A program made the position numbers and the translations under genes. Below, piece after piece: positions 1,045 through 61,450 of a stretch of DNA of 64,000 bases; position 1 is the first letter of the stretch; each line of letters begins with the position of its first letter. The notes beneath the pieces were generated by a model that did not search any database, had not been told where the DNA came from, and was given only the letters and a program-made list of their open reading frames with translations. The stretch is taken from the NCBI GenBank assembly GCA_024663395.1, contig JANFAH010000007.1, positions 496,001 through 560,000 of the forward strand, written 5' to 3'. This stretch comes from Pisolithus tinctorius. Taxonomy: Eukaryota; Basidiomycota; Agaricomycetes; Boletales; Pisolithaceae.

Positions 1045-1447
1045 TGTCACACACCAAAGGTGTTGTGGACATGGTTACAGCTGACTCTGCCTAGCTTGTC
1101 AATGAGTTGCACACAATGCCCATGCATGCAGATGAAGACTAAAGGCCTCATGTGTAGAAAGACTGCCAGACATGAGCAGTCATCCTTCACACAAGAATGA
1201 GTTGTCAGTGCTAAAGAGAAAAGAGGAAGCAAGTTAAGCATGCATTAAAGGTTTTTAGCACCTGTGTATGGCATTCCAGTTTTCATCATATCTCCACCAT
1301 TTCCAAAGATATCAACTCCATTCTCACACTCACTTAAAGTGCTCAGCCCCACGATTCTTCCTTCCAAATTTGGAGAGGATCCTTGCACCCTATGCATTTC
1401 TACAGCACTCCATCCATCAGACACTCATTTCACTAAGTCCATCAATC

Positions 1448-1927
1448 ATGGCCACCTCTTTGTTGATCATCTCACTTGTCTCATTTGCCAGAGACAGTGG
1501 CTATGTATATCTGCCAGGCATTCCCACCAGCTTCCGTCCTGAAGCCCCCTGGTTCATCCCATCATTGTCAGCCCTGTCTCATCCCATGCAGCTTGGTCAG
1601 CATGTTCTCCTTGTCAGTATGACTTCCAGAAGGATGTTTTTTGGTTGCCTCAGGTCTGTCACTTGGTTAGAAAGGTCTTATGTGGTTGTTTCAGTCTCCC
1701 TGGTGGATGAAGCATATGGATCATTCCTCCCTGCTCCCTGCACCATCTTTATTCCAGTCTCATCCATCATTCTTCCTGCATTGCAACAGCTGCAGCATAA
1801 TCTACTGTTCTCCAGCCTCCCTGATTGCATTCATGATGAGTATGACATGCATCTTGCCTTCTTACTGCAAGGTCCAGCAGAAGACATCCCCCCTTCTCCT
1901 CCTCCTCCATCAAAGCCCTGTCCATGA
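1448..1927 (+). CDS. Element-B ORF, copy 1 (159 aa, unknown function)
   Basis: ATG 1448 to TGA 1927, exactly 480 bp, as in the other three copies. The protein has no family I recognise. Visible features: YLPGIPTSF near residue 20, a beta-rich-looking core around VLLVSMTSRRMFFG and LERSYVVVSV, EAYGSFLPAPC in the middle, an amphipathic stretch LPALQQLQHNLL, and an acidic then proline-rich tail (PSPPPPSKP). This copy has several Arg-to-Cys/His/Trp changes (CGN codons lost by CpG decay) but no stop or indel. The ORF is also open upstream, but a 1-nt indel just before this ATG in copy 4 argues for this start. Confidence 0.6.
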   Translation: MATSLLIISLVSFARDSGYVYLPGIPTSFRPEAPWFIPSLSALSHPMQLGQHVLLVSMTSRRMFFGCLRSVTWLERSYVVVSVSLVDEAYGSFLPAPCTIFIPVSSIILPALQQLQHNLLFSSLPDCIHDEYDMHLAFLLQGPAEDIPPSPPPPSKPCP

Positions 1928-2180
1928 AGCTTTTGTTAACTTCACTGAGAGGATGAAAGGGTGGGAGACATGATCACCTATGCTCCTGTTGCCCCACAGA
2001 CCCCCAACACCCTAGCCCCCTTTGACACCTGACTCATGCCCTTCAGTTCTGGAATTAATACTTCCCTATCTGGAAACACCATCCATCTGTCATGCCATCT
2101 TTGGATCTAGAGATGTCTCCACCAAGATCTGACTTGCATTGCCACCCCCTAATGTGATATCAGTGCACTTACTCAGTTTC

Positions 2181-3063
2181 TGTCATATCCATGACTCTCG
2201 GACTCGGTCCCAGTCCAGTCTGAACCCCTAGCCCCTGTCTCCAGTCAAGCCCAGTCCTAGTCCAGCCTAGAGAACTCTACTCCAGCCCTAGGAAACCCAA
2301 CTCTGGTCTAAATAACTTAAGTCCAGTGTTTTACCCCTATCTCCAGTCCATTCCAGCCTCCCGGCCTTGTGCTGCTCCACCCTGGTCCTCCCAGGTCCAT
2401 GTCTGGGTCACCCAGACATAACTCCAGTCTGTTTTCCTTTGTTTGTGCTATACTTATTCTTGTCCTTTTGTCTAACTCTGCTTACTGTACAAATCCTGTG
2501 TCTGACCCCAGTATGCCGGTCACCTGGACTTTGGCTATTAGCCTCTGCATAGCCACTGTGGCTATTCACTCTCTTACTAATCTTCTTGCTAATAGCTTAT
2601 TAACAAGTCTGGCTCTATGTTCGTTATCCTGGACTGGCCTTGTGTATTTAACCCCTGTACATACTTCATAGCACCTCAGTCAGAATATCAATTAAGTATT
2701 ACCCTCAACTCCTGTACTACACCCTGAGACTACTCTTTAGCTAAGGCTGAGCCTTAGGCTATCCCTGGCCCCTGCCCTGGACCTCTCCCTGGCTTGCATA
2801 AGGGTACAGCACATAAGCTGAGACCAAGGGAGGTAGATCCAACCCCAGACCAGCTTCCCCTTGTGTGCACTCCAAGACCGGTCAGTTTCCCACGCTACCG
2901 GCCTTAAGTCTGGTCCTCTGGACTTAGCCCCTAACCTCTGGCCTCAACTCCAGTCCAACTGGACTTGGCCCCTGTCTCCTGGCCTTGACTTTGGTCAGTC
3001 AGACTTAGCCCCTGTCACCTGGTCTTGAAGCCCAGTCACCTGAGGGTAAACCTGTACTTGACA
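2181..3063 (+). mobile_element. Solo LTR of family C, copy C1 (nested in B1)
   Basis: Begins TGTCATATCCATGACTC and ends TACTTGACA; flanked by gtttc / gttcc (5-bp duplication with one change). The uninterrupted sequence in B copy 3 (tcagtttctgactcc, near 29090) confirms the empty site. 883 bp, CpG-poor compared with C2, C5 and C6. Confidence 0.85.
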
Positions 3064-3718
3064 GTTCCTGACTCCATTTGACTTGTTCTGTGATATTTTG
3101 ACTATCCTTGACTTGTTCATTGCCAATACTTACCAATCTTTTTTGCTTGCTTACTTTTCATTTCTTGCTTACTCATCATGATTACTCAGTCCTTACTCAT
3201 TACTTACCAGGTGTTTGTGCCTTGTTTGTCACAAGCTGTGCTCCCCCCGCAGTATATAAACCCCCATGTACTTAGCAACCCCCAAGTGAACCAGAAGCCA
3301 TTCACTCAGCAGTCAGTCAGTTCTTCTCAGCATAACTCATCATCAACAGTTGAGGCTCATTTGGAAGAGTCTATCTGCCATCCTTCATCATCTGAAGTAT
3401 CATCTGTGCTTTGTCAGCACACCTGCTTAGTCATCCATCTACTCCTGCATAACTTGTTGATGACTTGCGCTAGGAGTCCTTTTGGCTGAACACCTCTGCT
3501 CTGTTCAGCATCCCCTTCTCAATCAGCATTCATTCATCCTCTCCTGCATAACTCATCAACGACTTGCACCAGGAGCACCTCCACTTGAAGTCCCCCCCCA
3601 CATTTAGGTTTTTCTGCACTCCAGATTCCACAGAGGCAAACCACCACTCGCTCTTATTTGTCTTTTGTGTTGGATTTGTTTGGTTTTCACCAGCTTTCCA
3701 CACTTTGACTCACACCAG

Positions 3719-5773
3719 ACTCCTGCACAAGGAATGCCAACCCTGTCAACACCCCCTGTGAGCCCAGTCTCCACTGGCCTCCCTGACTCTGGTCCTAGTG
3801 ACCAACCTGGCCTTGTGCCATCTGTACCAGTCTCTGACTCCCTGGCTTGCACCCCCTTGAAGGCCCCTCTCATTTCCCTAATCAATGCAGCCACCTTTGT
3901 GTGCACCTGCAAACTTGAAGGGTCTGTCCAGTTCCAACTTCAGCTCTGCCCCTCAGACTCAGCTCAAGCATGGTCAGCCTCAGCTTGCCCTCCTCCAGCC
4001 TTACCCAATGTACCCAAGAGTACCATGATTTTGCTGATGTCTTCAGTAAAGCCAGGGCCTTGGCACTCCCGCCTCACTGGGAGTATGACCTGAAAATAGA
4101 GCTTGAAGAAGGAACAACCCCACCATTAGGCACCATTTACTTGCTGTCCCTGGTCAAGCTCCAAGCTCTCCAGACCTTCATTGATGAGAACCTCACCACT
4201 GGTTTCATTCAGCCTACCTCTTCCCCCTATGCTGCACTGGTCCTCTTTGTCAAAAAGAAGGATGGCTCCCTCCAGCTCTGTGTAGACTTCTGTGGCCTCA
4301 ACAAAATCACTAAGAAAGACCACTACCCACTCCCACTCATCTCTGACCTCTTAGATTCACCAAGCTGAGCCAAGATCCATACTAAAATTGATCACCATCT
4401 TGTCTGGATTGCCCTGGGTGATGAATGGAAGACCACATTCTGGACTTGGTATGGTTCTTATGAGTGGTTAGTGATGCCCTTCAGTCTCACCAATGCCCCA
4501 GCTGCCTTCCAATGCTTCGTGAACACCATCTTTGCAAATATGTTGGATGTATGCATAGTTGTCTACTTAGATGACATCCTAATCTACTCCAGAGATAAGG
4601 AGTCCCACAAGCAGCATGTCCAAGAGGTGCTCCACTGGCTTTGGCTTCATGGCCTTTATGTGAAGCTGGAGAAATGTGAGTTTCACTTGGACTTGGTCAA
4701 ATACCTCAGTTTCCACCTCTCCCCCCTGCTGGCCTCACAATGTCCAAGGAGAAAGTCCAGACCATCTGTGATTGGCCTGAACCTCACAAGGTCAAGGACA
4801 TACAATCCTTCCTCAGCTTCACTAACTTCTATTGCCAGTTCATCTTTAATTACTTGGACATCATTGTACCACTGACTTGGCTTACCCACAAGGGGGCTCC
4901 TTGGAACTTCTCTGAGGAGTGCTGTTGGTCATTCAATAACCTCAAGGCCACCTTCACCACTGCACTGGTCTCAACTCATTTCATCCCCAGGGTCCCCATT
5001 ACTGTTGAGACCAATGCATCTGACTATGCCATTGCCAGCATTCTACCCATCACCTGTGGCAACAGCCAGATACATCTGGTCACTTTCTACTCCCAAACCC
5101 TAACCACCCTGGAGTTGAACTATGATACCCACGATAAGGAATTGCTTGCAATCTTTGAAGTGTTCTGGACCTGGCACCACTATCTTGAGGGCTTGGCCTC
5201 ACTGGTCAACATTGTTACCAATCACAAGAATCTTGAGTACTTCTCTACCTCTAAAGTACTCACCCACTGCCAAGCTTGCTGGTCAGAATTCCTGTCTCAG
5301 TTCAATATGGTCATCAGATTCAGACCCAGTAGGCTTGGGGCTAAGCCCAATGCCCTAACTAGATGATGGGACATCTACCCCAAAGAGGGGGATAGTGGCT
5401 ATGCCCAAGTGAACCCACAAAACCTGAGACTGGTCTTCACCTAGGAGCAGCTAGCAGTTTCGCTTTGTGCAACCTACCTCGAGTACCTGGTCTTACAAGC
5501 AGTCACACTAATGGATATAGAAAAACTACACAATGATATCCTGACTGCACTGCTGGACGACCCAGTCTCACAAATCCACCTGTCCAACATGTCTGATCCC
5601 CAGTGGTCAGTAGATGACACTGGCTTCCTTCAGCTCAATGGAAGGATCTACATGCCAGACTCAAATGATCTGCACCTTAGGGTCTTGTGGCTTAAGCATG
5701 ACCACCCCCTGTCCAGCCACTTTGGCCAAAACCAAACCCTAGAGCTCATTCAGCGTGAATATACCTGGCCCAG
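3719..5773 (+). pseudogene. Ty3 reverse transcriptase - RNase H - integrase N-terminus remnant
   Basis: Pieces in three frames. Protease-RT linker (3719-3980); RT start [12 protein letters not shown] (about 4017), [24 protein letters not shown], a stop at 4366-4368, then MPFSLTNAPAAFQ and the catalytic YLDDIL box (about 4564). After a frameshift near 4740 come the connection and RNase H: DWPEPHKVKDIQSFL, ETNASDYAIASIL, the HDKELLAI motif, and ALTR followed by TGA at 5365-5367, where the family has Arg (CGA to TGA). The C-terminus includes MDIEKLHNDI and the integrase HH part (LKHDHPLSSHFGQNQTLELI) ending at REYTWP. Inactive. Confidence 0.85.
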
Positions 5774-6675
5774 TGTCATATCCATGACTCTCAGACTCGG
5801 ACTCAGTCCAGTCCGGACCCCTAGCCCCTATCTCCGGTCAAGTCCGGTCCTAGTCCAGCCTAGAAAACCCAATCCCGGCCCTAGATAACTCAACTCCGGC
5901 CTGCATAACTCAAGTCCATTGTTTTACCCCTATCTCCGGTCCATTTCGGCCTCCCGGCCTTGCGCTGCTCCACCCTGGTCCTCCTAGGTCTATGTCCGGG
6001 TCACCCGGACATAACTCTGGTCTGTTTCCCTTTGTTTGTACTATATTTAGTCTAGCCCGTTCATCTGACTTTGCTTACTGTACGAATCCTGTGTCTGACC
6101 CCAGTATGCTGGTCACCCGGACTTGGGCTATTAGCCTCAGCACAGCCACTGTGGCTATCCACTCTCTTGCTAATCATCTTGCTAATAGCTTATTCACAAG
6201 TCTGGCTTCATGTTTGTTACTCCGGACTGGCCTCATGTATTTAACCCCTGTACATACTTCGTAGCACCCTCAGTCAGAATATCAACTTAGTATTACCCTC
6301 AACTCCATGTTACCCCTTGATCTACTCTATAGCTAAGGCCAAGCCTTAAGCTATCCCCGACCCCTGTCCCGGACCTCTCCCTGGCTTGCATAAGGGTACA
6401 GCACATAAGCTGAGACCAAGGGAGGTAGATCCAACCCTGGACTGGCTTCCCCTTGTGCGCACTCCAACACCGGTCGGTTTCCCACGCTACCGGTCTTATT
6501 CCCACGCTCCCGGCCTTAAGTCTGGTCCTCCGGACTTGGCCCCTGACCTCTGGCCTTAACTCCAGTCCAACCGGACTTGGCCCCTGTCTCCCGGCCTTGA
6601 CTTTGGCCACTTGGACTTAGCCCCTGTCACCCAGTCTTGAAGCCCGGTCACCCGAGGGTAAACCCATACTTCACA
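5774..6675 (+). mobile_element. LTR of family C, copy C2 (5' LTR of element C)
   Basis: 902 bp, TGTCATATCCATGAC to ATACTTCACA. Contains a TATA-like box (gtatttaacccctg, about 6236) followed by cagtcagaatatcaacttag. The sequence after it is not Ty3 remnant A, so this is not a simple solo LTR in A. Confidence 0.75.
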
Positions 6676-7828
6676 GTATATTCTGACTCACACTTGTGCA
6701 AGTCACTTCATCATGTCTAGGTCCTGCTCTAGAGCCCCTACCCATGACCTTGCCCATTGGGACTCATCGGAATACCTCTCATCTGACTCCGGAGCCCAGC
6801 CTGGAGATCTCTGCTGAAGCAGAGAGGTAGCTGGTGCCCCTCGGCACTCTGCACACCCCCAGGTTGCATTACCCCTGACACTATGTTCCTAGTGGTCAAA
6901 ACTTAATGCATCCATTCCCTCACTCCTGACCCCTGCCTGCCACTCATTTCTTCCTGACTCCGGACCGGCCATGTCAACCCCTGAGTTGGACTCACCATCT
7001 GGACTCACCACCAACCTGGGTACACACCTCAGCCCACTTCCAAGTTGGAGTTACTCTCCAGACTTGCCCCTGAGCTGGCCTCAACAACCGGACTCACTTC
7101 TGTTAGCTCCCCCAAGCCATCTCTGACCTCTGGCTGGTCACCCTGGTCTTCATCTCAGTCCTTACCTCAGTCATCCCAGCACTCCAGCCCAGCTGTCTTC
7201 ATCCGGTTCTACTGTACTGAACACTGGGATCTCATCACTCATTTGACCTCCTGACTCCCCAATGTTGGTCTTCAGACCTCTGTGCACCTCTGGTGCAACC
7301 CCCAGGCCCAGACTTGGCCGGTCCCGGCCCTCAATGCCTTCCCTGTTCCCCATTGGCACTCAGCTTCAGCAGTTTTTGGGTCTGGTCTCCACCCTTGGCC
7401 TTCACTACACCAGCCTTGGAGCCCTGGACCCCCTTTCTGGTCTCTGGACTGTCTGTTACTGGCCTGTCCGGCCTTGGTTGGCTTGTCCACACTCACCCGG
7501 ACTTGCCTGAAGCCTCTTTGCCACTTCCTCTGGCATCCCACCCTTCATTACTGGCCATTCCAGCCTTGGTCTCGGTTGGCCTCTCCACCCAGACCTCTCT
7601 AGGCCTGTTACTAGGTCTTAGACTGGTCCTGGATTTCCTCGGACCCTCCTGTCCCTCACAGACCCATCCCAGGTCTCCTGTCCATTGTCCCGGTCCTGCA
7701 CTAGTCACCTCAGCCTCAGGATGGTGCTTGTCCTTTGAACTTGCACCAGGCCTCAGCTCTGGTGGTCTTAGCTAGTGCATGACACCTCCATTTCGGTCTA
7801 GGACCAGTCTGCCAGCCCTCTGGCCCTT
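6676..7828 (+). other. Element C internal region, 5' part; possible gag start relic
   Basis: Pyrimidine-rich, Pro/Leu/Ser-biased sequence built from short variants of ctggtctcc, ccggcctt and ggactc. A short ORF at 6713-6817 (MSRSCSRAPTHDLAHWDSSE) reads like the start of a gypsy gag but stops after 34 codons. The longer ORFs here look like by-products of base composition. I see no other gene. Confidence 0.4.
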
Positions 7829-8710
7829 TGTGAAGTACAGGTTTACCCTCGGGTGACAGGGGCCAAGTCCGAGTGGCCAGAATCAAGGCTGGGAGACAGG
7901 GGCCAAGTCCGGTTGGACCGGAGTTAAGGCCGGAGGTCAGGGGCTAAGTCCGGAGGACCGGACTTAAGGCCGGGAGTGCGGGAATAAGACCGGTAGCGTG
8001 GGAAACTGACCGGTGTTGGAGTGCGCACAAGGGGAAGCCGGTCCAGGGTTGGATCTACCTCCCTTGGTCTCAGCTTATGTGCTGTACCCTTATGCAAGCC
8101 GGGGAGAGGTCTGGGACAGGGGCCGGGGATAGCTTAAGGCTCGGCCTTAGCTATAGAGTAGTCTTGGGGTGTAGTATGGAGCTGAGGGTAATACTAAGTT
8201 GATATTCTGACTGAGGGTGCTACGAAGTATGTACAGGGGTTAAATACATGAGGCTGGTCCGGGATAATGAACATAGAGCTGGACTTGTTAATAAGCTATT
8301 AGCAAGAAGATTAGCAAGAGAGTGGATAGCCATAGTGGCTGTGCCGAGGCTAATAGCCAAAGTCTGGGTGACCGGCATACCGGGGTCAGACACAGGATTT
8401 GTACAGTAAGCAAAGTCAGATGAACAGGCTAGACTAAATATAGTACAAACAAAGGGAAACAGACCGGAGTTATGTCCGGGTGACCTGGACATAGACCTAG
8501 GAGGACCGGGGTGGAGCAGCACAAGGCTGGGAGGCCGAAATGGACCGGAGATAGGGGTAAAACACCGGACTTGAGTTATGCAGGCTGGAGTTGAGTTATC
8601 TAGGGCTGGGATTGGGTTTTCTAGGCTGGACTAGGACCAGACTTGACCAGAGATAGGGGCTAGGGGTCCAGACTGGACTGAGTCCAAGTCCAAGAGTCAT
8701 GGATATGACA
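7829..8710 (-). mobile_element. Solo LTR of family C, copy C3, reverse orientation
   Basis: TGTGAAGTACAGG to GGATATGACA on the plus strand, i.e. reverse complement of the C LTR. Perfect 5-bp duplication ccctt (7824-7828, 8711-8715). 882 bp. Confidence 0.9.
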
Positions 8711-11435
8711 CCCTTAGCCCAGTCCTGACCTCTTTTCCAGCCTCACTTTTCACTTAGAGGCACCCCCTGGGCATGCTAGCCCTTTGGACTTGCTCCTGAC
8801 CCCCAATTTTCAGTCTAGGACCGATCTGCCGGTCCTCTGGCCCCTATCCCAGTCCCTGACCTCACTTCCAGTCCTTTCCCTGTCCTCTGTCCACCCCAGG
8901 ATCCTAACCAGGTTAACAAGTTGGTAGCTTCGTACTCTGGAAGCCAGAACCGGTGGTCTCAGTTGAGACAAAACAATTAGAGTCTACCCCAGGATCCTAA
9001 CTGGGTCAACAAGTTGGTACTCTGGTACACCAGAAGCCAAAACTGGTGGTCTTGGTAGAGACAAATCAATTAGTGCTACACTCCAGTCCCCTTAGCAGTC
9101 CTCCTGACTTGTCCTGCCAGACCCATGGCTTTGCCAGGCTTTACAGCCCAGACTTGCCAGCTCCGGTCCCCTTGTGGCCCTGGCTTGTCCTGCCAAACCC
9201 TGCTGGACCCCCAACTTCCCTCGGACTCACCTGGCTGTTCAACCCTGGACTGGACTTGCTAACTCCAGTCCTCCTATTTGTGTCCACTTTGTCCCACCTC
9301 TGGACTCCCTTATGACCGGTCTCCTGAGTTCCAGTCTTCCCTCCTTCACTAGGCCTTATCACCTTTGTCCGGCCTGTCACCTCTGGACTCCCTTGTAGCC
9401 CCTGACCAGTCTTGCTGACTCCAGCCTTCTTTCTCTTTTCCAGTGTTTCATCACTGGGCTTCCTCATGTTCCCAGACTGGCCTTGCTCACTCTGGACTCG
9501 TTTCTTTTGGCCGGTCTCCCATCTCCGGCCTGCTTCGGACTCTGATGCCCCTTGGGTAGCTCTATGCTACTCCTCTGTCACTCATTTGGCCTTCGGGCCT
9601 CTCCCTCCTCCCAGAACTACCCCTGTCCTCTACCCAGTGCTATGGTCTTGACCTAGCACCTCTTTCCGGTCCTTGGTGGACCCAGCCTTGGTTCTCTCTC
9701 GGTCTCCGACCCCTGTTTTAACCGGCCTTGTCAACCCATTAGGAACTGAAGTATCTTGGTTGTAGGGAACCAACTAGCCCACTCAATAGGCACCCATTGG
9801 CAGCCGAGTGTAATGCAGTCACCTATCCCCACCTAATACTAAAGTTTGCTAACCCCCCTGACGTCAACCCTGCCTTGGAGCATGAATTTGCTTGCAAGAC
9901 ACCCCAGGCTTTGGCCCATCTGACAAACCCCCGACTCTGCCAGCCTGTTTCCCAGCTCACCCACTTGCCCTGGAACTTGTATGTTTGCGAGGCCCCTTCG
10001 GGTACCAGCTAACCCCTCACCTTCCCCTAACCATTGCCACTGTCACCCCACCATCGACTCCGGAACTCTGGTCCTACCCACTCTCTGGACTCCAGTCTTC
10101 ACTGGCCTTCTGGTTTCCCCTCAGGCTCTGGTTCCAGCCTTCATACCCTCACCTTTGACTCTGACACTCCCTACTATCCCTGTACCAGTCTGGCCTGCTC
10201 TGCCAGCCTTGTATCTCCGGTTTTAAAGCTTTTCCGGCCTTGAAAAAGCTCCCTGAAACTGGGCTTAACACCTGTTAAGCCGGTCTCGGCATTCTCAGTA
10301 CTCAGACTTACAACTCTGGTGGTAGTACTCCTACTACCCATCCAGTACTCTGCTCCATGGTCCTAGCCCATACCTCGTACCCCTGTAGACTTGGGAAGTC
10401 TACCCTAAGAGGGGGATAAGGGACCTCGCTAGTGACCTACTCTCTTCCAAACTCCTGTCTGCTACCTCTCCAGTGCCCTCAGCACAACCCCACTCGGTCC
10501 CTGCACACTGGTTCCCAGTTCCTTGGCCCAGTCCTTGCATACTGAAGCACTCCCGAACCACCTGCCCTGGGTTGCTCCCAGCCCCTGACATTTGTGTTGG
10601 TACTCCAGTCTCACTGTCTCAATGGTTCTTGGCCTCGGTGATTGTGTGTTCACTGGTCTCACTGGTCTTGGCCTCCTGTTGTCAGCCTTTCAGCTGGACA
10701 ACCCCTAGGCCTCACCCGGTCTCCAGACCCCCTGAACCGGTCCTCCAGTGGCCCTTTTGGCCTTCGGGCTTCTCACCACCAGAAAACCCACTTCCAACCA
10801 ACTCCGGACACCCCTAAACCAGACTCAACACACGGACTCCCCTCCTGCTGACATCCCTAGGCCTTCATTGAACCGGTCTCATGACCTGCTGGTCCCTGGT
10901 TCATTCCTGGCTATGTCAGGTCCTCTGGTCCTCATGCAAACTCAACTCTCGCTGTCCTAGACAGCCTCCCCAATCCCTTGCCAACCTCTGGAAGCCGTCC
11001 AGCCTGTTCCAAGGTGCTCGGCACTTGGGCTTGCCACTTCTGGCCTTGGGATTACACCTTGCTACCCCTGGTTACCCCGGTCTCAGTGTTAGCCCACCGG
11101 CCTACACTGTTTTGGCCTCTGGTTGTCAGCCCACCAGCTGGATGGCACCTCAGGTCATCTCTGACTACCCCAAGCCCCTCCGACACCTTCAGACTGGCCT
11201 CCAGCCATCCCCTCTGGCCCTGCCCAACTCCAGACCAGTCTCCCTTTGGATTTCCAGCCTTACAGCCCCATCCAGGTCAAGACTGGTCTCCCATAGCCTT
11301 TCTAACCCTTTCAGTCCTCACTGGCTCCCGACTGGACCCCACCTGGCTTTTCTAAGCCCCCCTGACCATTAGACCGGTCTCCAGTTGCCCCTTCTGGTCC
11401 TCTCTGGCCCTCAGACCGGTTCCTGGCCTTCCCGG
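8711..11435 (+). other. Element C internal region, middle part; no gene seen
   Basis: Continuation of the C/T-rich internal sequence. It contains a partly repeated phrase (ggatcctaac..aacaagttggta..ccagaa) at about 8900 and 8990, and a polypurine-like tract (ctaagagggggata, about 10401) that may mark an older degraded 3' end. Open frames are Pro/Leu/Ser-rich on the plus strand and are not supported as genes. Confidence 0.4.
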
Positions 11436-13624: not shown

Positions 13625-15472
13625 TGTGAGTCAAAGTGTGGAATGCTGGTGAAAACCAAACAAATCCAACACAAAAGACAAATAAGAGCGAGTGGTGGTT
13701 TGCCTCCGCGGAACCTGGAGGGCGGAAACCTAAATGTGGGGGGGAGACTTCAAGTAGAGGTGCTCCTGACACAAGTCGATGACGAGTTATGCAGGAGAGG
13801 ATGAATGAATGCTGATTGAGAAGGGGATGCTGAACAGAGCGAAGGTGTTCAGCCGAAAGGTACTTCAAGTAATGGACTTCAAGTAAACGTGCTCCTTGCA
13901 CAAGTCGATGACGAGTTATGCAGGAGTGGGAGGATGACTAAGCAAGACTTGCTGACTAAGTGGGGAGCTTCAGATGAATGATGGAGGCAGATAGACTCTT
14001 CCGAATGAGCCTCAACTACCAAGTATACGAATGACGACAGATAGACCCCTTCGTGGAGCCTCAACTGTTGACGATGAGATAGGCACTGAACTGATTGCTG
14101 GACTGCTTCTTGATCGATTGATTGTGGGTAGCTAAGTACATGGGGGTTTATATACTGAGGGGGGAGCACTGCTTGTGACAAACAAGGCACAAACACTTGG
14201 TAAGTAATGAGTAAGGACTGAGTAATCATGATGAGTAAGCGAGAAATGAAAAGTAAGCAAGCAAAGAGGATTGGTAAGTATTGGCAATGAGCGAGTCAAG
14301 GATAGTCAAAATATCACAAAATGAGTCAAATAGAATCAGAAACTGAGTAAGCGCACTGATATCACATTAGGGGGTGGCGATGCAAGTCAGATCTCAGTGG
14401 AGACATCTCTAGACCCAAAGATGGCATGACAGATGGATGGTGTTTCCAGACAGGGAAGTATTAATTCCAGAATTGAAGGGCATGAGTCAGGCGTCAAAGG
14501 GGGCTAGGGCGTTGGGGGTCTGGGGCAATGAGAGCATACGCGATCGCGTCTCCCACCCTTCCATCCTCTCAGCGAAGTTAACAAAAACTTCATGAACGGG
14601 GCTCTGATGGAGGAGGAGGAGAAGGGGGGACATCTTCTGCTGGATCTTGCAGTAAGAAGGCAAGATGCATGTCATACTCGTCATGAATGCGATCAGGGAG
14701 GCTGGAGGACAGTAGATTATACTGCAGCTGTCGCAATGCGGGAAGAATGATGGACGAGATTGGAATAAAGATGGTGCAGGGAGCAGGGAGGAACGATCCA
14801 TATGCTTCATCAACCGGGGAGACTGAAATGACCACATAAGACCTTTCTAACCGAGTGACAGACCTGAGGCGACCAAAGAACGTCCTTCTGGAAGTCATAC
14901 TGACAAGGAGAACACGCTGACCAAGCTGCATGGGACGAGATGGGGCTGACAATGACGGGATGAACCAGGGGGCTTCAGGACGGAAGCTGGTGGGAACACC
15001 TGGCAGATATATGTAGTCACTGTCTCTGGCAAATGAGACAAGCGAGACGATCGACGAAGAGGCGGCCATGATTGATGGACTTAGCGAAATGAGCGTCTGA
15101 TGGATGGAGTGCTGTAGAAACGTGTAGGGTGCGAGGATCCTCTCCAAATTTGGAAGGAAGAATCGTGGGACCGAGCACTTTAAGCGAGCATGCGAACCGA
15201 GTTGATATCTTTGGAAACGGTGGAGATATGATGGAAACCGGAATGCCGTACACGGGCGCTAAAAACTTTTAATGCGCGCTTAACTCGCTTCCTCTTTTCT
15301 CTTTAGCACTGATGACTCGTTCTTGTGCGAAGGATGACTGTTCACGTCCAACAGTCTTTCTACGCATGAGGCCTTTAGTCTTCATCTGCATGCATGGGCA
15401 TTGTGCGCAACTCGTCAACGAGTTAGGCAGAGTCAGCTGCAACCATGTCCACAACACCTTTGGTGTGTGACA
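13625..15472 (-). mobile_element. Element B copy 2, reverse orientation (1,848 bp)
   Basis: TGTGAGTCAAAGTG to GGTGTGTGACA on the plus strand. 4-bp duplication acgc (13621-13624, 15473-15476). It splits the element E gag without other damage, so it is younger than E. Contains the intact 480-bp ORF, and a TATA-like box (gtatataaaccc on the minus strand, about 14152). Confidence 0.9.
14590..15069 (-). CDS. Element-B ORF, copy 2 (159 aa, unknown function)
   Basis: ATG 15069 to TGA on the minus strand, 480 bp, no breaks. This is the most CpG-intact copy, so it is the best view of the ancestral protein: MAASSSIVSLVSFARDS at the start, YLPGVPTSFRPEAPWF, QRVLLVSMTSRRTFFGRL, RLERSYVVISVSPVDEAYG, LPAPCTIFIPISS, LPDRIHDEYDMHLAFLL, and a proline tail. 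No signal peptide, membrane segment or known motif is evident. The upstream extension to codon 26 before this ATG is open here but not conserved in copy 4. Confidence 0.65.
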   Translation of the reverse strand: MAASSSIVSLVSFARDSDYIYLPGVPTSFRPEAPWFIPSLSAPSRPMQLGQRVLLVSMTSRRTFFGRLRSVTRLERSYVVISVSPVDEAYGSFLPAPCTIFIPISSIILPALRQLQYNLLSSSLPDRIHDEYDMHLAFLLQDPAEDVPPSPPPPSEPRS

Positions 15473-27725: not shown

Positions 27726-27960
27726 TGTCATATCCATGACTCTCAGACTCGGACTCAGTCCAGTCCGGACCCCTAGCCCCTATCTCCGGTCAAGTCTGGT
27801 CCTAGTCCAGCCTAGAAAACCCAATCCCGGCCCTAGATAACTCAACTCCAGCCTGCATAACTCAAGTCTGTTGTTTTACCCCTATCTCCAGTCCGTTTCG
27901 GCCTCCCGGCCTTGCGCTGCTCCACCCCGGTCCTCCTAGGTCTATGTCCAGGTCACCCGG
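27726..27960 (+). mobile_element. Partial LTR of family C, copy C4 (3' LTR of element C)
   Basis: TGTCATATCCATGAC onward matches the first 235 bp of the other C LTRs, then stops at the start of element B copy 3. The rest is not found on the other side of B3, so the junction has been rearranged or deleted. Confidence 0.8.
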
Positions 27961-29807
27961 TGTCACACACCAAAGGTGTTGTGGACATGGTTACAGCTGA
28001 CTCTGCCTAACTCGTTGACGAGTTGCGCACAATGCCCAAGCATGCAGATGAAGACTAAAGGCCTCATGCGTAGAAAGACTGTTGGACGTGAACAGTCATC
28101 CTTCGCACAAGAACGAGTCGTCAGTGCTAAAGAGAAAAGAGGAAGCGAGTTAAGCGCGCATTAAAAGTTTTTAGCACCCATGTACGGCATTCCGGTTTTC
28201 GTCGTATCTCCACCATTTCCAAAGATATCGACTCCATTCCCATGCTCACTTAAAGTGCTCAGCCCCACGATTCTTCCTTCCAAATTTGGAGAGGATCCTC
28301 GCACCCTATGTGTTTCTACAGCACTCCATCCATCAGACGCTCATTTCGCTAAGTCCATCAATCATGGCCACCTCTTCGTCGATCATCTCGCTTGTCTCAT
28401 TTGCCAGAGACAGTGGCTACGTATATCTGCCAGGCGTTCCCACCAGCTTCCGTCCTGAAGCCCCCTGGTTCATCCCATCATTGTCAGCCCCGTCCTGTCC
28501 CATGCAGCTTGGTCAGCGTGTTCTCCTTGTCAGTATGACTTCCAGAAGGACGTTCTTTGGTCGCCTCAGGTCTGTCACTCGGTTAGAAAGGTCTTATGTG
28601 GTCGTTTCAGTCTCCCCGGTTGATGAAGCATATGGATCGTTCCTCCCTGCTCCCTGCACCGTCTTTATTCCAGTCTCGTCCATCATTCTTCCCGCATTGC
28701 GACAGCTGCAGTATAATCTACTGTCCTCCAGCCTCCCTGATCGCATTCATGACGAGTATGACATGCATCTTGCCTTCTTACTGCAAGATCCAGCAGAAGA
28801 CGTTCCCCCTTCTCCTCCTCCTCCATCAGAGCCCTGTTCATGAAGTTTTTGTTAACTTCGCTGAGAGGATGGAAGGGTGGGAGACGCGATCGCGTATGCT
28901 CTCATTGCCCCACAGACCCCCAATGCCCTAGCCCCCTTTGACGCCTGACTCATGCCCTTCAATTCTGGAATTAATACTTCCCTATCTGGAAACACCGTCC
29001 ATCTGTCATGCCGTCTTTGGATCTAGAGATGTCTCCGCCGAGATCTAACTTGCATCGCCACCCCCTAATGTGATATCAGTGCGCTTACTCAGTTTCTGAC
29101 TCCGTTTGACTCATTCTGTGATATTTTGACTATCCTTGACTCGTTCATTGCCAATACTTACCAATCCTCCTTGCTTGCTTACTTTTCATTTCTCACTTAC
29201 TCATCATGATTACTCAGTCCTTACTCATTACTTACCAAGTGTTTGTGCCTTGTTTGTCACAAGCTGTGCTCCCCCCATAGTATATAAACCCCCATGTACT
29301 TAGCTACCCACAATCAATCAATCAAGAAGTCACTCAGAAGTCAGCTCAGCTCAGCATATCTTGTCGTCGACAGTTGAGGCTCATTCGGAAGAGTCTATCT
29401 GTCTTCATTCATATCATTGGTAGTTGAGGCTCCATCAAGGGTCTATCTACCTTCATCTGAAGTATCATCTGTGCTCTGTCGGCACACCTGCTTAGTCATC
29501 CATTCACTCCTGCGTAACTCGTCATCGACTTGCGCCAGGAGCATATTCTATCAAAAGTCCATTACCCCCAAGTACTTTTGGCTGAACACCTTCACTCTGT
29601 TCAGCATCCCCTTCCCAATCATTGTCCATTCGTCTTCTCCTGCGTAACTTGTCAACGACTTGCGCCAGGAGCACCTCCACTTGAAGTCTTCCCCACTTTA
29701 GGTTTCTCTGCCCTCCAGGTTCTGCAGAGGTAAACCACCACTCGCACATATTTGTCTTTTGTGTTGGTTTGGTTGGTTTATACTGCCTTTCCACACTTTG
29801 ACTCACA
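27961..29807 (+). mobile_element. Element B copy 3 (1,847 bp)
   Basis: TGTCACACACCAAAGG to TTTGACTCACA. Left flank ccgg, right flank gcgg: the 4-bp duplication is not perfect. TATA-like gtatataaaccc at about 29280. Internal near-repeats of ctcctgcgtaact..gacttgcgccaggagca at about 29508 and 29636. Confidence 0.85.
28364..28843 (+). CDS. Element-B ORF, copy 3 (159 aa, unknown function)
   Basis: ATG 28364 to TGA 28843, 480 bp, unbroken. Differs from copy 2 by a few substitutions such as Ala to Thr at residue 3 and Arg to Cys near the end, several at CpG. All blocks (YLPGVPTSF, SMTSRRTFFG, LERSYVVVSV, EAYGSFLPAPC, DRIHDEYDMHLA) are kept. No recognised domain. Confidence 0.65.
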   Translation: MATSSSIISLVSFARDSGYVYLPGVPTSFRPEAPWFIPSLSAPSCPMQLGQRVLLVSMTSRRTFFGRLRSVTRLERSYVVVSVSPVDEAYGSFLPAPCTVFIPVSSIILPALRQLQYNLLSSSLPDRIHDEYDMHLAFLLQDPAEDVPPSPPPPSEPCS

Positions 29808-30285
29808 GCGGATGGGTGGATGGCTGGCAATAGTGTGATTAATGCCAAATACACCAAGGGTGCAGCTTGTGAGGTCTGGGACACTCAAATCAGCTCTGAT
29901 TCATGCCAGAATGGTTTCCATGGAAAGCCACTGTTGAGCGGGTGCCAGGGATGCTGCATCCGCTCAATACAGATGGGCGGATGGCTGGCAATAGTCTGAT
30001 TAATGCTAAATACACCAAGGGTGCAGCTTGTGATGTCTGGGTCACTCAAATTAGCTCTGATTCATTCCAGAATGGTGTCCATGGCAAGCCAATATTGGGG
30101 GGGTGCTGGGGATGCCGCATCCACTCAATGTGGATGGGCAGATGGCTGGCAATAGTCTGATTAATGCCAAATACATCCAGACTGCAGCTTGTGAGATCTG
30201 GGTCACTCAAATCATCTCCAATTCATGCCAGCATGGTGTCCATTGAAAGCCACTGTTCAGTGGGTGCCAGGGATACCACATCCAT
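29808..30285. repeat. 161-bp tandem repeat, about three units
   Basis: The phrase ggatggctggcaatag recurs at 29818, 29979 and 30140, a period of 161 bp. Units share cagcttgtga..tctgggtcactcaaat and gccactgttgagcgggtgccaggga. It begins exactly where element B copy 3 ends. Confidence 0.85.
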
Positions 30286-31190
30286 TAGTGACAGGCCCGT
30301 CTTTATGTTTCAACAGGGTACATCTTACTAGGGCTGGGCCTGCCCATATGCTGTGATAATATAAATAATACTACTGAAGGGCCTGTCCATATGTTGTGAT
30401 GCTATACATGAGATTACTGATGGGCCCATCTTTATGTTTCATCCGAGCTACATCTTGCTGTGGACGGGCCCGCCCATATGTTGTGACAATATCAATTATA
30501 CTACTGAAGGGCCTGTCCATATCTTGTGATGCTACACATGAGATTACTGATGGGCCTGTCTTCATGTTTCATCAGAGGTACATCTTACTGTGGACAGGCC
30601 TGTCCATATGTTGTGACTCTATTCAATGATACTAGTGATGGGCCCGTCTTTATGTTTTGACAGGGTACATCTTACTGGGGCCAGGCCCCCCCATATGTTG
30701 TGACAATATAAATAATACTACTGAAGGGCCCATCTTTATGTTTCATCAGAGGTACATCTTACTGTGGACAGGCCTGTCCATATGTTGCAACAATATAAAT
30801 AATACTACTGAAGGGCCCGCCCTTATGTTGTGACTCTATTAAATGATATTAATGATGGGCCCGTCTTTATGTTTCAACAGCGGTACATCTTGCTATTGAC
30901 AGGCCCGCCTTGATGTTGCGACAGGGGTGTAACCTACCAGGACAGGCCCGCCCATGTCTTACAGCAGCTCAGTATTCTTAATTGGTCACAGGCCCATCTA
31001 AATGTTTCAACATCCTTACACACCATGGGCCCTCCCATATGTTGTGGTAATGCACTTACGGGCCCGTACATATGTTGCTCACACTTTAGTCCCTCGGGCC
31101 TGTCCATGTGTACTGGCTAATCTATTTAGGCGGGCCCATCTCGGGGTCTATATAAGTGTTGGTGTTTTGGTGCACAGGCTGCCCATGTGT
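30286..31190. repeat. About 130-bp tandem repeat rich in GGGCCCG
   Basis: Units built from two or three variants of gggcccgcccatatgttgtga linked by AT-rich arms such as caatataaataatactactgaa. The actactgaag phrase falls at 30370 and 30500, then at irregular spacing. The right part (30,900-31,190) is more degenerate. The 4-bp core GGCC is palindromic in each sub-unit. Confidence 0.8.
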
Positions 31191-34323: not shown

Positions 34324-36137
34324 TGTCACACACCAAAGGTGTTTGGTGAGGTGGACATGGATGCAGCTGATGAATGGAGATGAAGACCATAGCCCTCATG
34401 TGAGGAAGGACAGCCAGAAATGCCAGCAGTCATCCCTTGCACAAGAACGAGTCATCAATGCCAAAGAAAAGAAAGGAGAAAGCAAGTTAAGCGCTGGTTA
34501 AAATTCTTAAGTGCCCGTGTACAGCATTCCAGTTTTCAACATATCTCTGCCATTTCTGCAGATACCAAAACCATTCCCACACTTGCTTGTAGTGCTCAGC
34601 CATGTGATCCTACCTTCCAAGATTGGAAAGGATTTGCACACTCCACACATTTCTACAGCACTCCCTCCAAAAGATGCTCATTTCACTAATTCTTCTGATA
34701 TGGCTGCCTCCACATCAATCATTTCACTTGTCCCCTTTGCTAGGGACCATGGCTACATATATCTACCAGGGGTTCCTACCAGCTTCCATCCTGAAGCATC
34801 CTGGTACATCCTGTCCTCGTCTGCCCCCTCCCAGCCCATCCAGCTTGGACAGTGTGTTCTTTTTGTCAGTATGACCTCTAGGAGGACATTCTTTGGTTGC
34901 CTCAGGTCTGTCATTTGCTTGGAAAGGTCTTATGTGGTCATTTCAGTCTATCCAGTCCAAGAAGCATATGGATCCTTCCTCCCTGCTCCCTGCAACATCT
35001 TCATACCAGTCTTGTCCATCATTCTTCCAAAATTGCAACAGCTACAGTATAATCTACTGTTCTCCACTCTCCCTGATCGCATCCATGAGGAGTATGATGC
35101 ACATCTTGCCTCCTTGTTGCAAGATACAGCAGAAGATGCTCCCCCTTCATCCTCTCTTCCATCAGAGCCTCATTCATGAAGTTTTTTTATTTGCTTCACT
35201 GAGAGGATGGTTTGGGGGGGAAAGTTGTGATCCCCTATGCTCCTGTCACCCCACAGACCCCCAAAGCTTGACCCCTGTTGACATCTGACTCACCCTGTCT
35301 GCTTTTGGATGTACTATATTGGCATCAGATCAGTGCTGCCTCTCTGTCATCCTACCTTGGCCTAGAAGCGATCTCTTCGAGATGTGACATGCACAGCCTC
35401 CCCCTAATGCGATTCCAGTGCGCTTTCCCAGTTTCTGACTTTACTTGACTCATACTTTGACATCCTGACTGTCTTTGACTCACTTATTGCCAATACTTAC
35501 CAATCTTTTGGCCTTGCTTACAGATTCTTCGCTTTTTTGGCTTACTTATCCTTACCAATGCTCACCAATGCTTTCTAAGACGATTACCCACTGCTTACAT
35601 TCCTTACTCATCAGTTACCAATCACTTACCAAGTGTTTGCACCTTGTTTTCCATAGGCAATGCCCCTGTACTGTATATAATCACTGTACTTAGATAGCTA
35701 AAGAAGAAGACATCAGAGAGCCCCTCTTGCTTGCATTTTATCATCTCTCAGTAAATCATTCATCAGCTTCGATAGTTGAGACTTTATTAAGGGTCTAGCT
35801 ATTGTCTACTTCACTTATCATTGTCTATCATCAATATACTTTGCTCCAAGCCCTTCCTGAGCTCAGTGCAGCCTAGGACATTGAATTAAGTCATCATCCA
35901 TCCATCTGTAGGCTGACAGCAGTCTACCCCATCACAATCTATTGCATTCTTGCTCCCTCTTTGTCAGGAGCACCCCCAACCCTCAGCACTCATCTTTGAG
36001 TGTTGTAGTTTGCAAAAACCCTCCCAAATCAAAGGTTCTACCATCTAGGTACCGCATAGGCACACCACCACTTGCTCTTTTTGTCTTTCATGTTGGTTTT
36101 GGTTGGTTTCCACCACTGAACCTCACTTTGACTCACA
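34324..36137 (+). mobile_element. Element B copy 4, strongly diverged (about 1.81 kb)
   Basis: TGTCACACACCAAAGG to TTTGACTCACA. Flanks ctga and ccaa are both one CpG transition from ccga, which also restores the copia reading PPD-LSKIPVWG. Many indels against copies 1-3 outside the ORF but none inside it. TATA-like gtatataatc at about 35675. Confidence 0.85.
34700..35179 (+). CDS. Element-B ORF, copy 4 (159 aa, diverged but intact)
   Basis: ATG 34700 to TGA 35179, again exactly 480 bp. Starts MAASTSIISLVPFARDHGYIYLPG. Retains SMTSRRTFFGCLRSV, LERSYVVISVYP, EAYGSFLPAPCNIFIPV, LPDRIHEEYDAHLASLLQD and a Pro/Ser tail. Differences from copy 3 fall often at third positions (for example GGC/GGG, CTC/CTT, AGA/AGG) and there is no indel over 159 codons, while the region just upstream of the ATG has a 1-nt indel. 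This pattern supports coding constraint and this start. Function unknown. Confidence 0.65.
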   Translation: MAASTSIISLVPFARDHGYIYLPGVPTSFHPEASWYILSSSAPSQPIQLGQCVLFVSMTSRRTFFGCLRSVICLERSYVVISVYPVQEAYGSFLPAPCNIFIPVLSIILPKLQQLQYNLLFSTLPDRIHEEYDAHLASLLQDTAEDAPPSSSLPSEPHS

Positions 36138-39077: not shown

Positions 39078-40277
39078 TGTCAAGAATGTGATCTGGAATT
39101 ATGGTAGCATCTCAGAGTTTCGCCCAGAGGGCTCAGAGTTGTTCCCCAACCCTCAGAATTAAATTCCAATGTCAATGTGCTTACTAATGTCATATCCATG
39201 ACTCTCGGACTCGTTCCCAGTCCAGTCCGGACCCCTAGCCCCTATCTCCGGTCAAGTCCGGTCCTAGTCCAGCCTAGAAAACCCAATCCCGGCCCTAGAT
39301 AACTCAACTCCGGCCTGCATAACTCAAGTCCGGTGTTTTACCCCTATCTCCGGTCCGTTTCGGCCTCCCGGCCTCGCACTGCTCCACCCCAGTCCTCCTA
39401 GGTCTATGTCTGGGTCACCTGGACATAACTCCGGTCTGTTTCCCTTTGTTTGTACTATATTTAGTCTAGCCCATTCATCTGACTTTTGCTTACTGTACAA
39501 ATCCTGTGTCTGACCCCGGTATGCCGGTCACCCAGACTTTGGCTATTAGCCTCTGCATAGCCACTGTGGCTATCCTCGTCTTGCTAATCATCTCACTAAT
39601 AGCTTATTCACAAGTCCAGCTCTATGTTCATTATCCCGGACCGGCCTCATGTATTTAACCCCTGTACATACTTCGTAGCACCCTCAGTCAGAATATCAAT
39701 TAAGTATTACCCTCAACTCCGTACTACCCCTCGAGACTACTCTATAGCTAAGGCCGAGCCTTAAGCTATCCCCGACCCCTGTCCCAGACCTCTCCCTGGC
39801 TTGCATAAGGGTACAGCACATAAGCTGAGACCAAGGGAGGTAGATCCAACCCCGGACCAGCTTCCCCTTGTGCGCACTCCAACACCGGTCAGTTTCCCAT
39901 GCTACCGGTCTTATTCCCGTGCTCCCGGCCTTAAGTCCGGTCCTCCGGACTTAGCCCCTAACCTCCGGCCTCAACTCCGGTCTAACTGGACTTGGCCCCT
40001 GTCTCCCGGCCTTGATTCTGGCCACTCAGACTTGGCCCCTGTCACCTGGTCTTGAAGCCTGGTCACCTGAGGGTAAACCCATACTTCACAACTAATTATG
40101 GTACTATAAATTTTCCGCACCATTCTTTTCCACCTCAGTGACTGCTTCATACACTGAGGTGAGTATGGCTAAATTCCTGCTTGTTTACTTGGTACTGATG
40201 TAGTGTAGAAACTCATACCTTCATTAGGTACTAATATAGTGACTGCTTTGTACACTGAGAAACTCATACCTTCATTA
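39078..40277 (+). repeat. Copia-1 3' LTR, interrupted by C5
   Basis: TGTCAAGAATGTG to CCTTCATTA; 292 bp after removal of C5 and its duplicate. Aligns fully to 31785-32076. Confidence 0.85.
39188..40090 (+). mobile_element. Solo LTR of family C, copy C5
   Basis: 903 bp, TGTCATATCCATGAC to ATACTTCACA. Perfect duplication actaa (39183-39187, 40091-40095). The empty site is present in the copia-1 5' LTR (gcttactaattatgg). Confidence 0.95.
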
Positions 40278-43689: not shown

Positions 43690-44465
43690 GCTGAGTAGAG
43701 TTCCAGCTGAAAAATCAAGGTATCACTTACATGCTATCATGCCCCCAACACCAACAGGGAAACATGTTCTGGTCAGAAAAAATGGACCTTAATCTCCCAT
43801 TGAATGCTCACTTCCTGTCATTCCACCAATAGCAATAGTACAAGTGGGTCCAGTCAGCAAACATTCAGTTGACCATGCCATGAAATCACTCACTTGCTGT
43901 TATGTGACCAATGTGAACATCACAAGTGAGACAAGTCAGCAGAAACCCAGCAAAACAATGCATGAAATTGTTCACATTCTGTTACACCACCAGCATGAAG
44001 AGTGCAAGTGAGTCCAATCAGCAGACATCCAGCTGAACATGCATCATTTCACTCACTTTCTGTCATGCCACCAATATGAAGAGCACAAGTGAGCCCAATC
44101 AGTGGACATTCAGATAAATATGCCATCACTCACATTCTGTCAAGCCACCAGATCAACATTACAAGAAAACCAGATCAGCAAGCACCTAATGACCATGCCA
44201 TTGAATCCTCACATTCTGACATGCCACCAATATAATGAGTGCCAGTCAACCCAGTCAACAGATAGCCAACTCAACATGCCATTGAATTATAATTACTCAC
44301 CCTCTATGATGCCACCAACATACCAAGCAGTAGCAAGCCCATTCAGCAGACATTCAGCAAAACATACATGAAGTCATTCACTTTCTGTCATGCCACCAGC
44401 ATGCCAAAGAGCAGAGGTGAGAAAACATCTAGCAATCATTGTGTGTGTGGGTGTGTGGAAGATGT
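43690..44465. repeat. Satellite S3, left part (~83-bp units)
   Basis: Degenerate units of the type gagcccagtcagcagacatccagctgaacatgcc..atcactcac..ctgtcatgccaccaatatgaagagtgcaagt. Interrupted by copia-2 with the duplication gatgt. Faint unit-like phrases begin near 43,500. Confidence 0.8.
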
Positions 44466-60486: not shown

Positions 60487-61390
60487 TGTGAAGTACGGGT
60501 TTACCCTTGGAGTGACCAGGCTTCAAGACCGGGTGACAGGGGTTAAGTCCGAGTGGCCAAAGTCAAGGCCGGGAAGATAGGGGCCAAGTCCGGTTGGACC
60601 GGAGTTGAGGCCGGAGGTTAGGGGCTAAGTCCGGAGGACCGGACTTAAGGCCGGGAGCGCGGGAATAAGGCCGGTAGCGTGGGAAACCGACCGGTCTTGG
60701 AGTGCGCACAAGGGGAAGCTGGTCTGGGGTTGGATCTACCTCCCTTGGTCTCAGCTTATGTGCTGTACCCTTATGCAAGCCGGGGAGAGGTCTGGGACAG
60801 GGGTTGGGGATAGCTTAAGGCTCGGCCTTAGCTATAGAGTAGTCTCGAGGGGTAATACGGAGTTGAGGGTAATACTAAGTTGATATTCTGACTGGGGTGC
60901 TACAAAGTATGTACAGGGGTTAAATACATGAGGCCGGTCCGGAGTAAAGAACATGAAGCCGGACTTGTTAATAAGCTATTAGCAAGAAGATTAGCAAGAG
61001 TGTGGATAGCCACAGAGGCTGTGCAGAGACTAATAGCTAAAGTCCGGGTGACCGGCATACCGGGGTCAGACACAGGATTTGTACAGTAAGCAAAGTCAGA
61101 TGAACGGGCTAGACTAAATATAGTACAAACAAAGAGAAACAGACCGGAGTTATGTCCAGGTGACCCGGACATAGACCTGGGAGGACCGGGGTGGAGCAGT
61201 GCAAGGCCGGGAGGCCGAAATGGACCGGAGATAGGGGTAAAACACCGGACTTGAGTTATGTGGGCCGGAGTTGAGTTATCTAGGGCCGGGATTGGGTTTT
61301 CTAGGCTGGACCAGGACCGGAGTTGACCGGAGTTAGGGGCTAGGGGTCCGGACTGGGCTGAGTCCGAGTCCGAGAGTCATGGATATGACA
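60487..61390 (-). mobile_element. Solo LTR of family C, copy C6, reverse orientation
   Basis: TGTGAAGTACGGG to GGATATGACA, 904 bp. Perfect duplication ccaac (60482-60486, 61391-61395). The most CpG-rich copy, hence young. Sits at the right border of satellite S3. Confidence 0.95.
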
Positions 61391-61450
61391 CCAACATGAA
61401 GGCAACACAAATTATTCAGTTCACCATGTAAATCTTTAATGATGTGGAAT

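What the first reader, a model, noticed from the sequence alone, without database searches (positions are those of the whole stretch)
27961..29807. Element B: a 1.85-kb TG..CA unit with 4-bp duplications and a conserved 480-bp ORF in all four copies
Copies at 1045, 13625 (reverse), 27961 and 34324 share ends and, where testable, 4-bp duplications (ccag, acgc, ccga). All four keep an ORF of exactly 480 bp. Copy 4 has many indels elsewhere, including 1 nt just before the ATG, but none in the ORF, and many third-position changes. A TATA-like box lies downstream of the ORF. I infer either a very long solo LTR carrying an accessory gene in its U3, or a non-autonomous element with its own gene. The protein is unknown to me.
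Basis: partly seen in the sequence, partly recalled or inferred. Interest (0 to 1): 0.85.

Follow-up and report, generated by a model that had tools for sequence, protein, structure and literature searches.

The report
Fungal retrotransposon LTR carrying a gene
A very abundant jumping gene of the mushroom Pisolithus tinctorius carries a small, selection-maintained protein gene of a family without a name, placed inside its end repeats much as in one mouse retrovirus.

Summary
Element B is the 1.84-kb LTR of a recently active Ty3/gypsy retrotransposon (~11.5 kb, gag and pol frames) in what I take to be a Pisolithus tinctorius genome. The four window copies are isolated LTRs. The 159-aa ORF lies in U3, upstream of a TATA box, so each intact LTR carries it. 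Two subfamilies differ by 17% in the ORF with no indel there; differences fall mostly on third codon positions (18/15/48), while the flanks show no phase. dN/dS is 0.20 for that pair, close to gag (0.19) and pol (0.15). The frame is therefore kept by selection on the protein. It is not intact everywhere: of 20 copies sampled without regard to the ORF, 12 keep it and 8 are broken. The protein matches no Pfam family. Relatives are named in four Pisolithus species and, at 32-48% identity, many are unnamed metagenome proteins. AlphaFold2 gives a confident small five-stranded fold (mean pLDDT 86.5) with only weak matches, several to Tudor, SH3, BAH and ribosomal proteins. Most likely it is an accessory gene embedded in U3, positioned like sag of mouse mammary tumour virus but without sequence match. 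Its function, promoter and splicing are not shown.

The parts
27961..29807 (+). Copy 3: LTR of subfamily B1 (isolated; flanks ccgg/gcgg not identical)
28364..28843 (+). Copy 3 accessory ORF, 159 aa plus stop
   Evidence: homologs; model
28313..28321 (+). TTTCTACAG, a possible 3' splice site 42 nt upstream of the ATG (41 in B2), present in the 10 B1 and B2 copies printed; function inferred only
29281..29287 (+). TATATAA box; transcription of the genomic RNA would start just after it, which places the ORF in U3
1045..3714 (+). Copy 1: LTR of subfamily B1, interrupted by an element A LTR at about 2181-3063; ccag flanks on both sides
1448..1927 (+). Copy 1 accessory ORF (159-aa ATG; the frame is open further upstream to an ATG giving 219 aa)
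13625..15472 (-). Copy 2: LTR of subfamily B1, acgc flanks on both sides
14590..15069 (-). Copy 2 accessory ORF
34324..36137 (+). Copy 4: LTR of subfamily B2 (76% identical to copy 3 over the main alignable part)
34700..35179 (+). Copy 4 accessory ORF (77% identical protein)

Best explanation
Element B is the LTR of a Ty3/gypsy retrotransposon of Pisolithus tinctorius whose U3 contains a third gene, after gag and pol. SHOWN: LTR pairs flank gag and pol; the ORF is upstream of the TATA box; the protein is under purifying selection of the same order as gag; it belongs to a protein family with no Pfam name; and it is predicted with confidence to fold as a compact small five-stranded domain with flanking helices. 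INFERRED: because U3 is copied to both ends at reverse transcription, each new insertion carries two copies of the gene and each solo LTR keeps one. The genomic RNA, starting after the TATA box, would carry the gene only at its 3' end, so the protein must be made from a subgenomic mRNA, either from a promoter in U3 upstream of the ORF or by splicing to a site such as TTTCTACAG just before the ATG. Most likely role (about 0.35 for this step alone): a small adaptor that helps the element's own expression in the nucleus, by acting on its RNA or chromatin or against silencing, like accessory proteins of complex retroviruses and CERV of Cer1.
For: LTR pairs: C2:2748936/2758565 with 7786 bp between and tcgc/tcgc flanks, and C5:3007255/3016878 with ccgg/ccgg flanks; 4 and 2 differences between their two LTRs. 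20 same-strand pairs 9.45-9.75 kb apart among 150 scored places. Pol domains RVT_1, RNase H, H2C2 and rve in Ty3/gypsy order, DUF4100 in the gag frame. Between L004 (B1) and L069 (B2), both from LTR-paired elements, differences by codon phase in the ORF are 18/15/48 (p 4e-6), against 20/25/25 upstream and 9/11/12 downstream. dN/dS is 0.20-0.30 for 21 B1 x B2 pairs (7 x 3 chosen copies); gag 0.19, pol 0.15. No gap columns in the ORF, against 68 in the 403-nt 5' flank, one of them a 1-nt gap just before the ATG. Start methionine shared by 53 of 59 aligned rows. Homologs: 9, 27 and 199 proteins. Model of mean pLDDT 86.5, ten-residue means 89-95 over residues 11-140.
Confidence: 0.78

Rival explanations
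1. The ORF is a chance open frame: the U3 DNA is conserved for promoter or packaging reasons and the copies are simply too young to have lost the frame.
For: The four LTR pairs measured are young (2-8 aligned differences); 8 of 20 unselected copies are broken; other frames are open for about 100 aa too.
Against: Third-position excess in the ORF only, with flanks flat; no indels in the ORF between subfamilies; protein relatives at 32-48% identity; a confident fold.
Confidence: 0.06
2. A host gene captured by the LTR and kept because the host, not the element, uses the protein; the LTRs are its vehicle.
For: Gene models in Pisolithus annotate it as ordinary genes, some fused to other sequence (P0002, P0010, P0011, P0026).
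Against: No outlying relative stood out in this genome with four protein queries (best 150 of 1822-2062 candidates scored each). dS of the ORF (0.52) is similar to gag (0.66) and pol (0.45), so it has diverged together with the element.
Confidence: 0.12
3. The ORF is not a gene of its own but the last exon of a longer element protein (Pol or an env-like ORF), joined by splicing.
For: The frame is open about 63 codons upstream of the ATG in most of the 150 places (open_frame 222 aa); TTTCTACAG sits just upstream in all ten copies printed; some gene models carry extra N-terminal sequence (P0010, P0011).
Against: A 1-nt indel separates the upstream frame from the ORF between subfamilies; the start methionine is aligned in 53 of 59 rows, with a purine at -3 and G at +4 in the ten copies printed; the 5' flank shows no codon phase.
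Confidence: 0.12
4. A non-autonomous 1.85-kb transposable element with its own gene, unrelated to LTR retrotransposons.
For: The window copies stand alone, two of four with 4-bp duplications.
Against: Paired copies flank a 7.7-7.8-kb gag-pol body in both subfamilies.
Confidence: 0.02

Closest known systems
sag (superantigen) of mouse mammary tumour virus
   Same: An accessory gene in the LTR's U3, so each LTR carries it; that sag lies in U3 is recalled. The passages seen in PMC6692512 speak of sag mRNAs from the LTR and from an internal env promoter, and of TBLV, with a truncated sag, differing only in U3.
   Different: The ORF matches no Pfam family; the host is a fungus without T cells; the protein is predicted to be a small compact domain. 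Whether Sag and this protein share a fold was not tested.
CERV of the C. elegans element Cer1 (PMC10309623, passages seen)
   Same: An extra protein of an LTR retrotransposon with a demonstrated element-serving role (nuclear export of genomic RNA). [quoted passage not shown]
   Different: The gene is a 3' ORF of the element body rather than inside the LTR (recalled, not in the passages seen); the M, G and H domains described differ from the domain seen here.
Additional ORFs of plant LTR retrotransposons and fungal Boty (review PMC7264820, parts 1 and 2 of 3 read)
   Same: Extra ORFs of unknown function kept in most copies, mostly downstream of pol.
   Different: Those reviewed lie in the internal region, most often between pol and the 3' LTR, sense or antisense; this one lies inside the LTR, sense, and so exists twice per element and in each solo LTR.
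crapaud of Podospora anserina (PMC10787394, passages seen)
   Same: A fungal LTR element with LTR subfamilies, in a genome with C-to-T repeat mutation.
   Different: The passages seen describe only gag and pol ORFs.

Membership tests
Ty3/gypsy LTR retrotransposon | Paired direct LTRs with TG...CA ends around an internal body | tested here: met
Ty3/gypsy LTR retrotransposon | Pol order RT - RNase H - integrase | tested here: met
   RVT_1 484-598, RNase H 727-856, H2C2 1001-1055, rve 1075-1163 (rve 30.1 bits, below its cut-off of 32.6)
Ty3/gypsy LTR retrotransposon | Short target-site duplication | tested here: met
   2 of 4 paired elements (tcgc, ccgg; none seen for C31 and C125, which share identical flanks and may be alleles); 2 of 4 window copies
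Ty3/gypsy LTR retrotransposon | tRNA primer binding site after the 5' LTR | tested here: inconclusive
   A 25-nt block after the 5' LTR is identical in one B1 and one B2 element (TCTGGAGCCCACCGCGAGGGGTGGT); the tRNA was not identified
MMTV-sag-like U3 accessory gene | Gene lies within U3 of the LTR | tested here: met
   ORF at LTR positions 404-883, TATA at about 1320; transcription start not measured
MMTV-sag-like U3 accessory gene | Sequence homology to Sag | tested here: not met
   0 Pfam families for the ORF at E <= 1; that Pfam holds a Sag family is recalled
Plant/fungal additional ORF between pol and 3' LTR | Sense ORF between pol and the 3' LTR | tested here: not met
   The ORF starts 403 nt inside the LTR; the pol frame ends 130 nt before the LTR
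SH3/Tudor-like small barrel | Fold match well above background | tested here: inconclusive
Rev/CERV-like RNA export factor | Nuclear, binds and exports genomic RNA | not testable with these tools
   needs cell biology

The most novel reading that the evidence does not exclude
A fungal lineage of Ty3/gypsy elements, spread beyond Pisolithus, keeps its accessory gene inside U3, so that each LTR, including the many solo LTRs left after the body is lost, is a complete stand-alone gene. The genome would then hold many hundreds of intact loci able to supply, in trans, a small Tudor-like adaptor protein that controls or protects the family. Recombination that removes gag and pol would leave the regulator behind, giving dose-dependent control of copy number or of silencing.
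Probability: 0.2. Interest if true: 0.85.

Novelty: new variant of a known kind. Interest (0 to 1): 0.62.

Why it matters
Reviewed extra ORFs in LTR retrotransposons sit in the internal region, most often between pol and the 3' LTR. A selected gene wholly inside the LTR is unusual: it doubles with each insertion and survives the recombination that removes the body, so the many solo LTRs become possible sources of an element-encoded regulator. The protein family has no Pfam model, has a confident predicted fold, and has relatives named in four Pisolithus species and in metagenomes, so what fungal retrotransposons gain from accessory proteins becomes testable.

Tried and rejected
Non-autonomous element reading: rejected, since paired LTRs surround gag-pol in B1 and B2. 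Alternative frame: a second ORF of 97-118 aa overlaps in another frame in all four copies, but the excess of differences falls on the third position of the 159-aa frame, so the other frame is not the constrained one. Derivation from the element's own pol or gag protein: profile comparison gave nothing. Solved relatives by sequence: best E 0.83. Viral contigs: two scans, no relative. Splice donor in the leader: no GTRNGY in B1, one site in B2, where only the LTR part from position 1438 on was scanned. Viral fold library: best E 0.014, an unnamed phage protein, TM 0.31/0.40. Weak Pfam hits of other family members (p12I in 3 of 59, best E 0.0083; Transgly in 6 of 59, best E 0.063) treated as chance. 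Papers: five answered searches for ORFs in LTRs or additional ORFs and one for Pisolithus; by titles and abstract openings none described an ORF inside the LTR of a fungal retrotransposon, but apart from the passages or sections of five papers the listed papers were not read, and the library holds open-licence papers only. Whether the metagenomic relatives also sit in LTRs could not be tested (no scans of that collection allowed). Absence of a fold family proves nothing; barely tested residues outside 18-103.

Full report
ORGANISM AND ABUNDANCE. The window lies in a 92.5-Mb genome of 221 contigs. A protein annotated in Pisolithus tinctorius sits on a contig of 6,752,466 bases, the exact length of contig C1 here, so the genome is taken to be P. 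tinctorius, order Boletales. The 20-base LTR terminus is found 1729 times (875 forward, 854 reverse) with up to two mismatches, against 0 for the control. Some contig pairs look allelic (C31/C125 elements have identical flanks), so counts may include duplicates.

WHAT B IS. Full B copies recur in the same orientation: among the 150 places, 20 same-strand pairs lie 9.45-9.75 kb apart. The pair at C2:2748936/2758565 encloses 7786 bp with a gag-like frame (1317 codons stop to stop) and a pol frame (1412 codons) that overlaps it. Pol contains RVT_1, RNase H, zinc-binding integrase and integrase core in Ty3/gypsy order; the gag frame has DUF4100 and a sub-threshold aspartic-protease match. The LTRs of four such pairs differ at 4, 2, 8 and 8 aligned sites (the last two may be alleles of one insertion), so these insertions are recent. 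A second subfamily, B2 (copy 4 of the window), also has full elements (C1:6581563/6591089, internal 7733 bp). The four window copies are isolated: copies 1 and 2 have matching 4-bp flanks, and copies 3 and 4 show neither of the element's internal junctions at their edges.

WHERE THE ORF LIES. In copy 3 the ORF occupies LTR positions 404-883; the TATATAA box lies at 1321 (1319 in copy 2, 1351 in copy 4). By the usual LTR layout the ORF is in U3, and the genomic RNA would hold it only near its 3' end. This placement rests on the TATA box; the transcription start was not measured.

IS IT A GENE? Copies from the two subfamilies were compared pairwise. L004 and L069 come from LTR-paired elements (the LTR divergence of L069's pair was not measured; both its ORFs score alike). 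Over their 477 coding bases, differences fall 18/15/48 on codon positions 1/2/3 (p 4e-6); in the 403 nt before the ORF 20/25/25 (p 0.7) and in 117 nt after it 9/11/12 (p 0.8). dN/dS is 0.20 (bootstrap 0.12-0.33) for that pair and 0.20-0.30 over 21 B1 x B2 pairs (7 B1 x 3 B2 chosen copies, not all young). The same measure gives gag 0.19 and pol 0.15; 159-codon windows run from 0.01 to 0.71, with the higher values at the gag end (0.28-0.34) and in the first part of the pol frame (0.71), so the ORF lies inside the range of real coding windows and the measure separates tight from loose stretches. All these pairs cross one split and are not independent. Indels: none in the ORF, 68 gap columns in the upstream 403 nt, one of them a single-base gap just before the ATG (the same for copies 3 and 4). 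Within subfamilies the ratio is weaker (for example 0.40 for L004-L012 and 0.63 for L069-L066, from the dN and dS), as expected where dead copies decay.

HOW INTACT IS IT? The best 150 scored places for the B1 query have no stop, but that list is ranked by similarity; for the B2 query a minority of the 150 carry one stop, nearly always TGA. Of 20 copies taken as every fifth of the 100 listed LTR termini (exact matches, all on C1), 20 hold ORF-related sequence (in one, L051, only the first 54 codons matched), 12 are open for the full length and 8 are broken by stops, frameshifts or an internal duplication.

HOW IT PROBABLY WORKS. Reverse transcription copies U3 to both ends, so the gene is doubled at each insertion and stays in the solo LTR. 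Expression must be subgenomic. One hint is TTTCTACAG 41-42 nt upstream of the ATG in all ten B1 and B2 copies printed, with no ATG between it and the start in 9 of the 10. Against splicing from the leader, B1 has no GTRNGY there. A TATA-less promoter within the first 400 nt is the alternative. The protein's job is inferred from position and fold: an adaptor acting on element RNA, chromatin or host silencing. The nearest tested precedent for an element-serving extra protein is CERV of Cer1, required for genomic RNA export (PMC10309623, passages). The core is basic in the window copies (pI 9.7 and 8.6) but not across the family (median 7.2 of 55 cores), so direct RNA binding is not a general property.

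COMPARISON. The arrangement resembles sag of mouse mammary tumour virus (recalled; passages of PMC6692512) without sequence match. Reviewed extra ORFs of plant elements and fungal Boty lie in the internal region (PMC7264820, parts 1-2 of 3). By titles and abstract openings no paper listed in the searches described a gene inside a fungal LTR (word searches, open-licence papers only).

VERDICT. A real, selected, LTR-embedded accessory gene of a Ty3/gypsy element and a member of a protein family without a Pfam model; function and expression open.

Noticed in passing
window 39188-40090, 5773-6677, 60485-61391 (minus), 7850-8712 (minus), 2181-3063, 27726-27960: Element A: a separate LTR-like repeat of about 0.9 kb (TGTCATATCCATGAC...CTTCACA in the 39188 copy); that copy has actaa on both sides, and one copy is inserted into B copy 1.
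   Followed up: partly
window 52774-60486 and 43807-44407: Degenerate tandem array with a unit of about 82 bp (also read as 163-164 bp) spanning about 7.7 kb, with a shorter related array near 44 kb.
   Followed up: no
window 29811-30955: Tandem arrays of 161-bp and 87/130-bp units lie directly beside the 3' end of B copy 3; its left flank is an element A fragment cut after base 235, so copy 3 seems to sit at a rearranged junction.
   Followed up: no
ORF copies across the genome: Copies with a stop mostly carry a single TGA; within 42 distinct B1 ORFs (480 bp, starting ATGGCC; others dropped), 183 of 543 minority-base cells lie at CpG/TpG/CpA contexts, suggesting some C-to-T decay.
   Followed up: partly
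P0003, P0004 (P. tinctorius), P0012, P0014 (P. microcarpus): Public gene models lack the same 18-residue stretch (54 nt in frame; strand 52-57 and part of 63-74 of the model) in two species; either a real alternative transcript or a shared prediction error.
   Followed up: no
L055: One LTR copy has a tandem duplication of the first part of the ORF.
   Followed up: no
G000 contigs C31/C125, C16/C143, C73/C168, C45/C110, C21/C79: Elements with equal scores, some with equal spacing, recur on contig pairs, suggesting that both haplotypes are partly present in the assembly.
   Followed up: no
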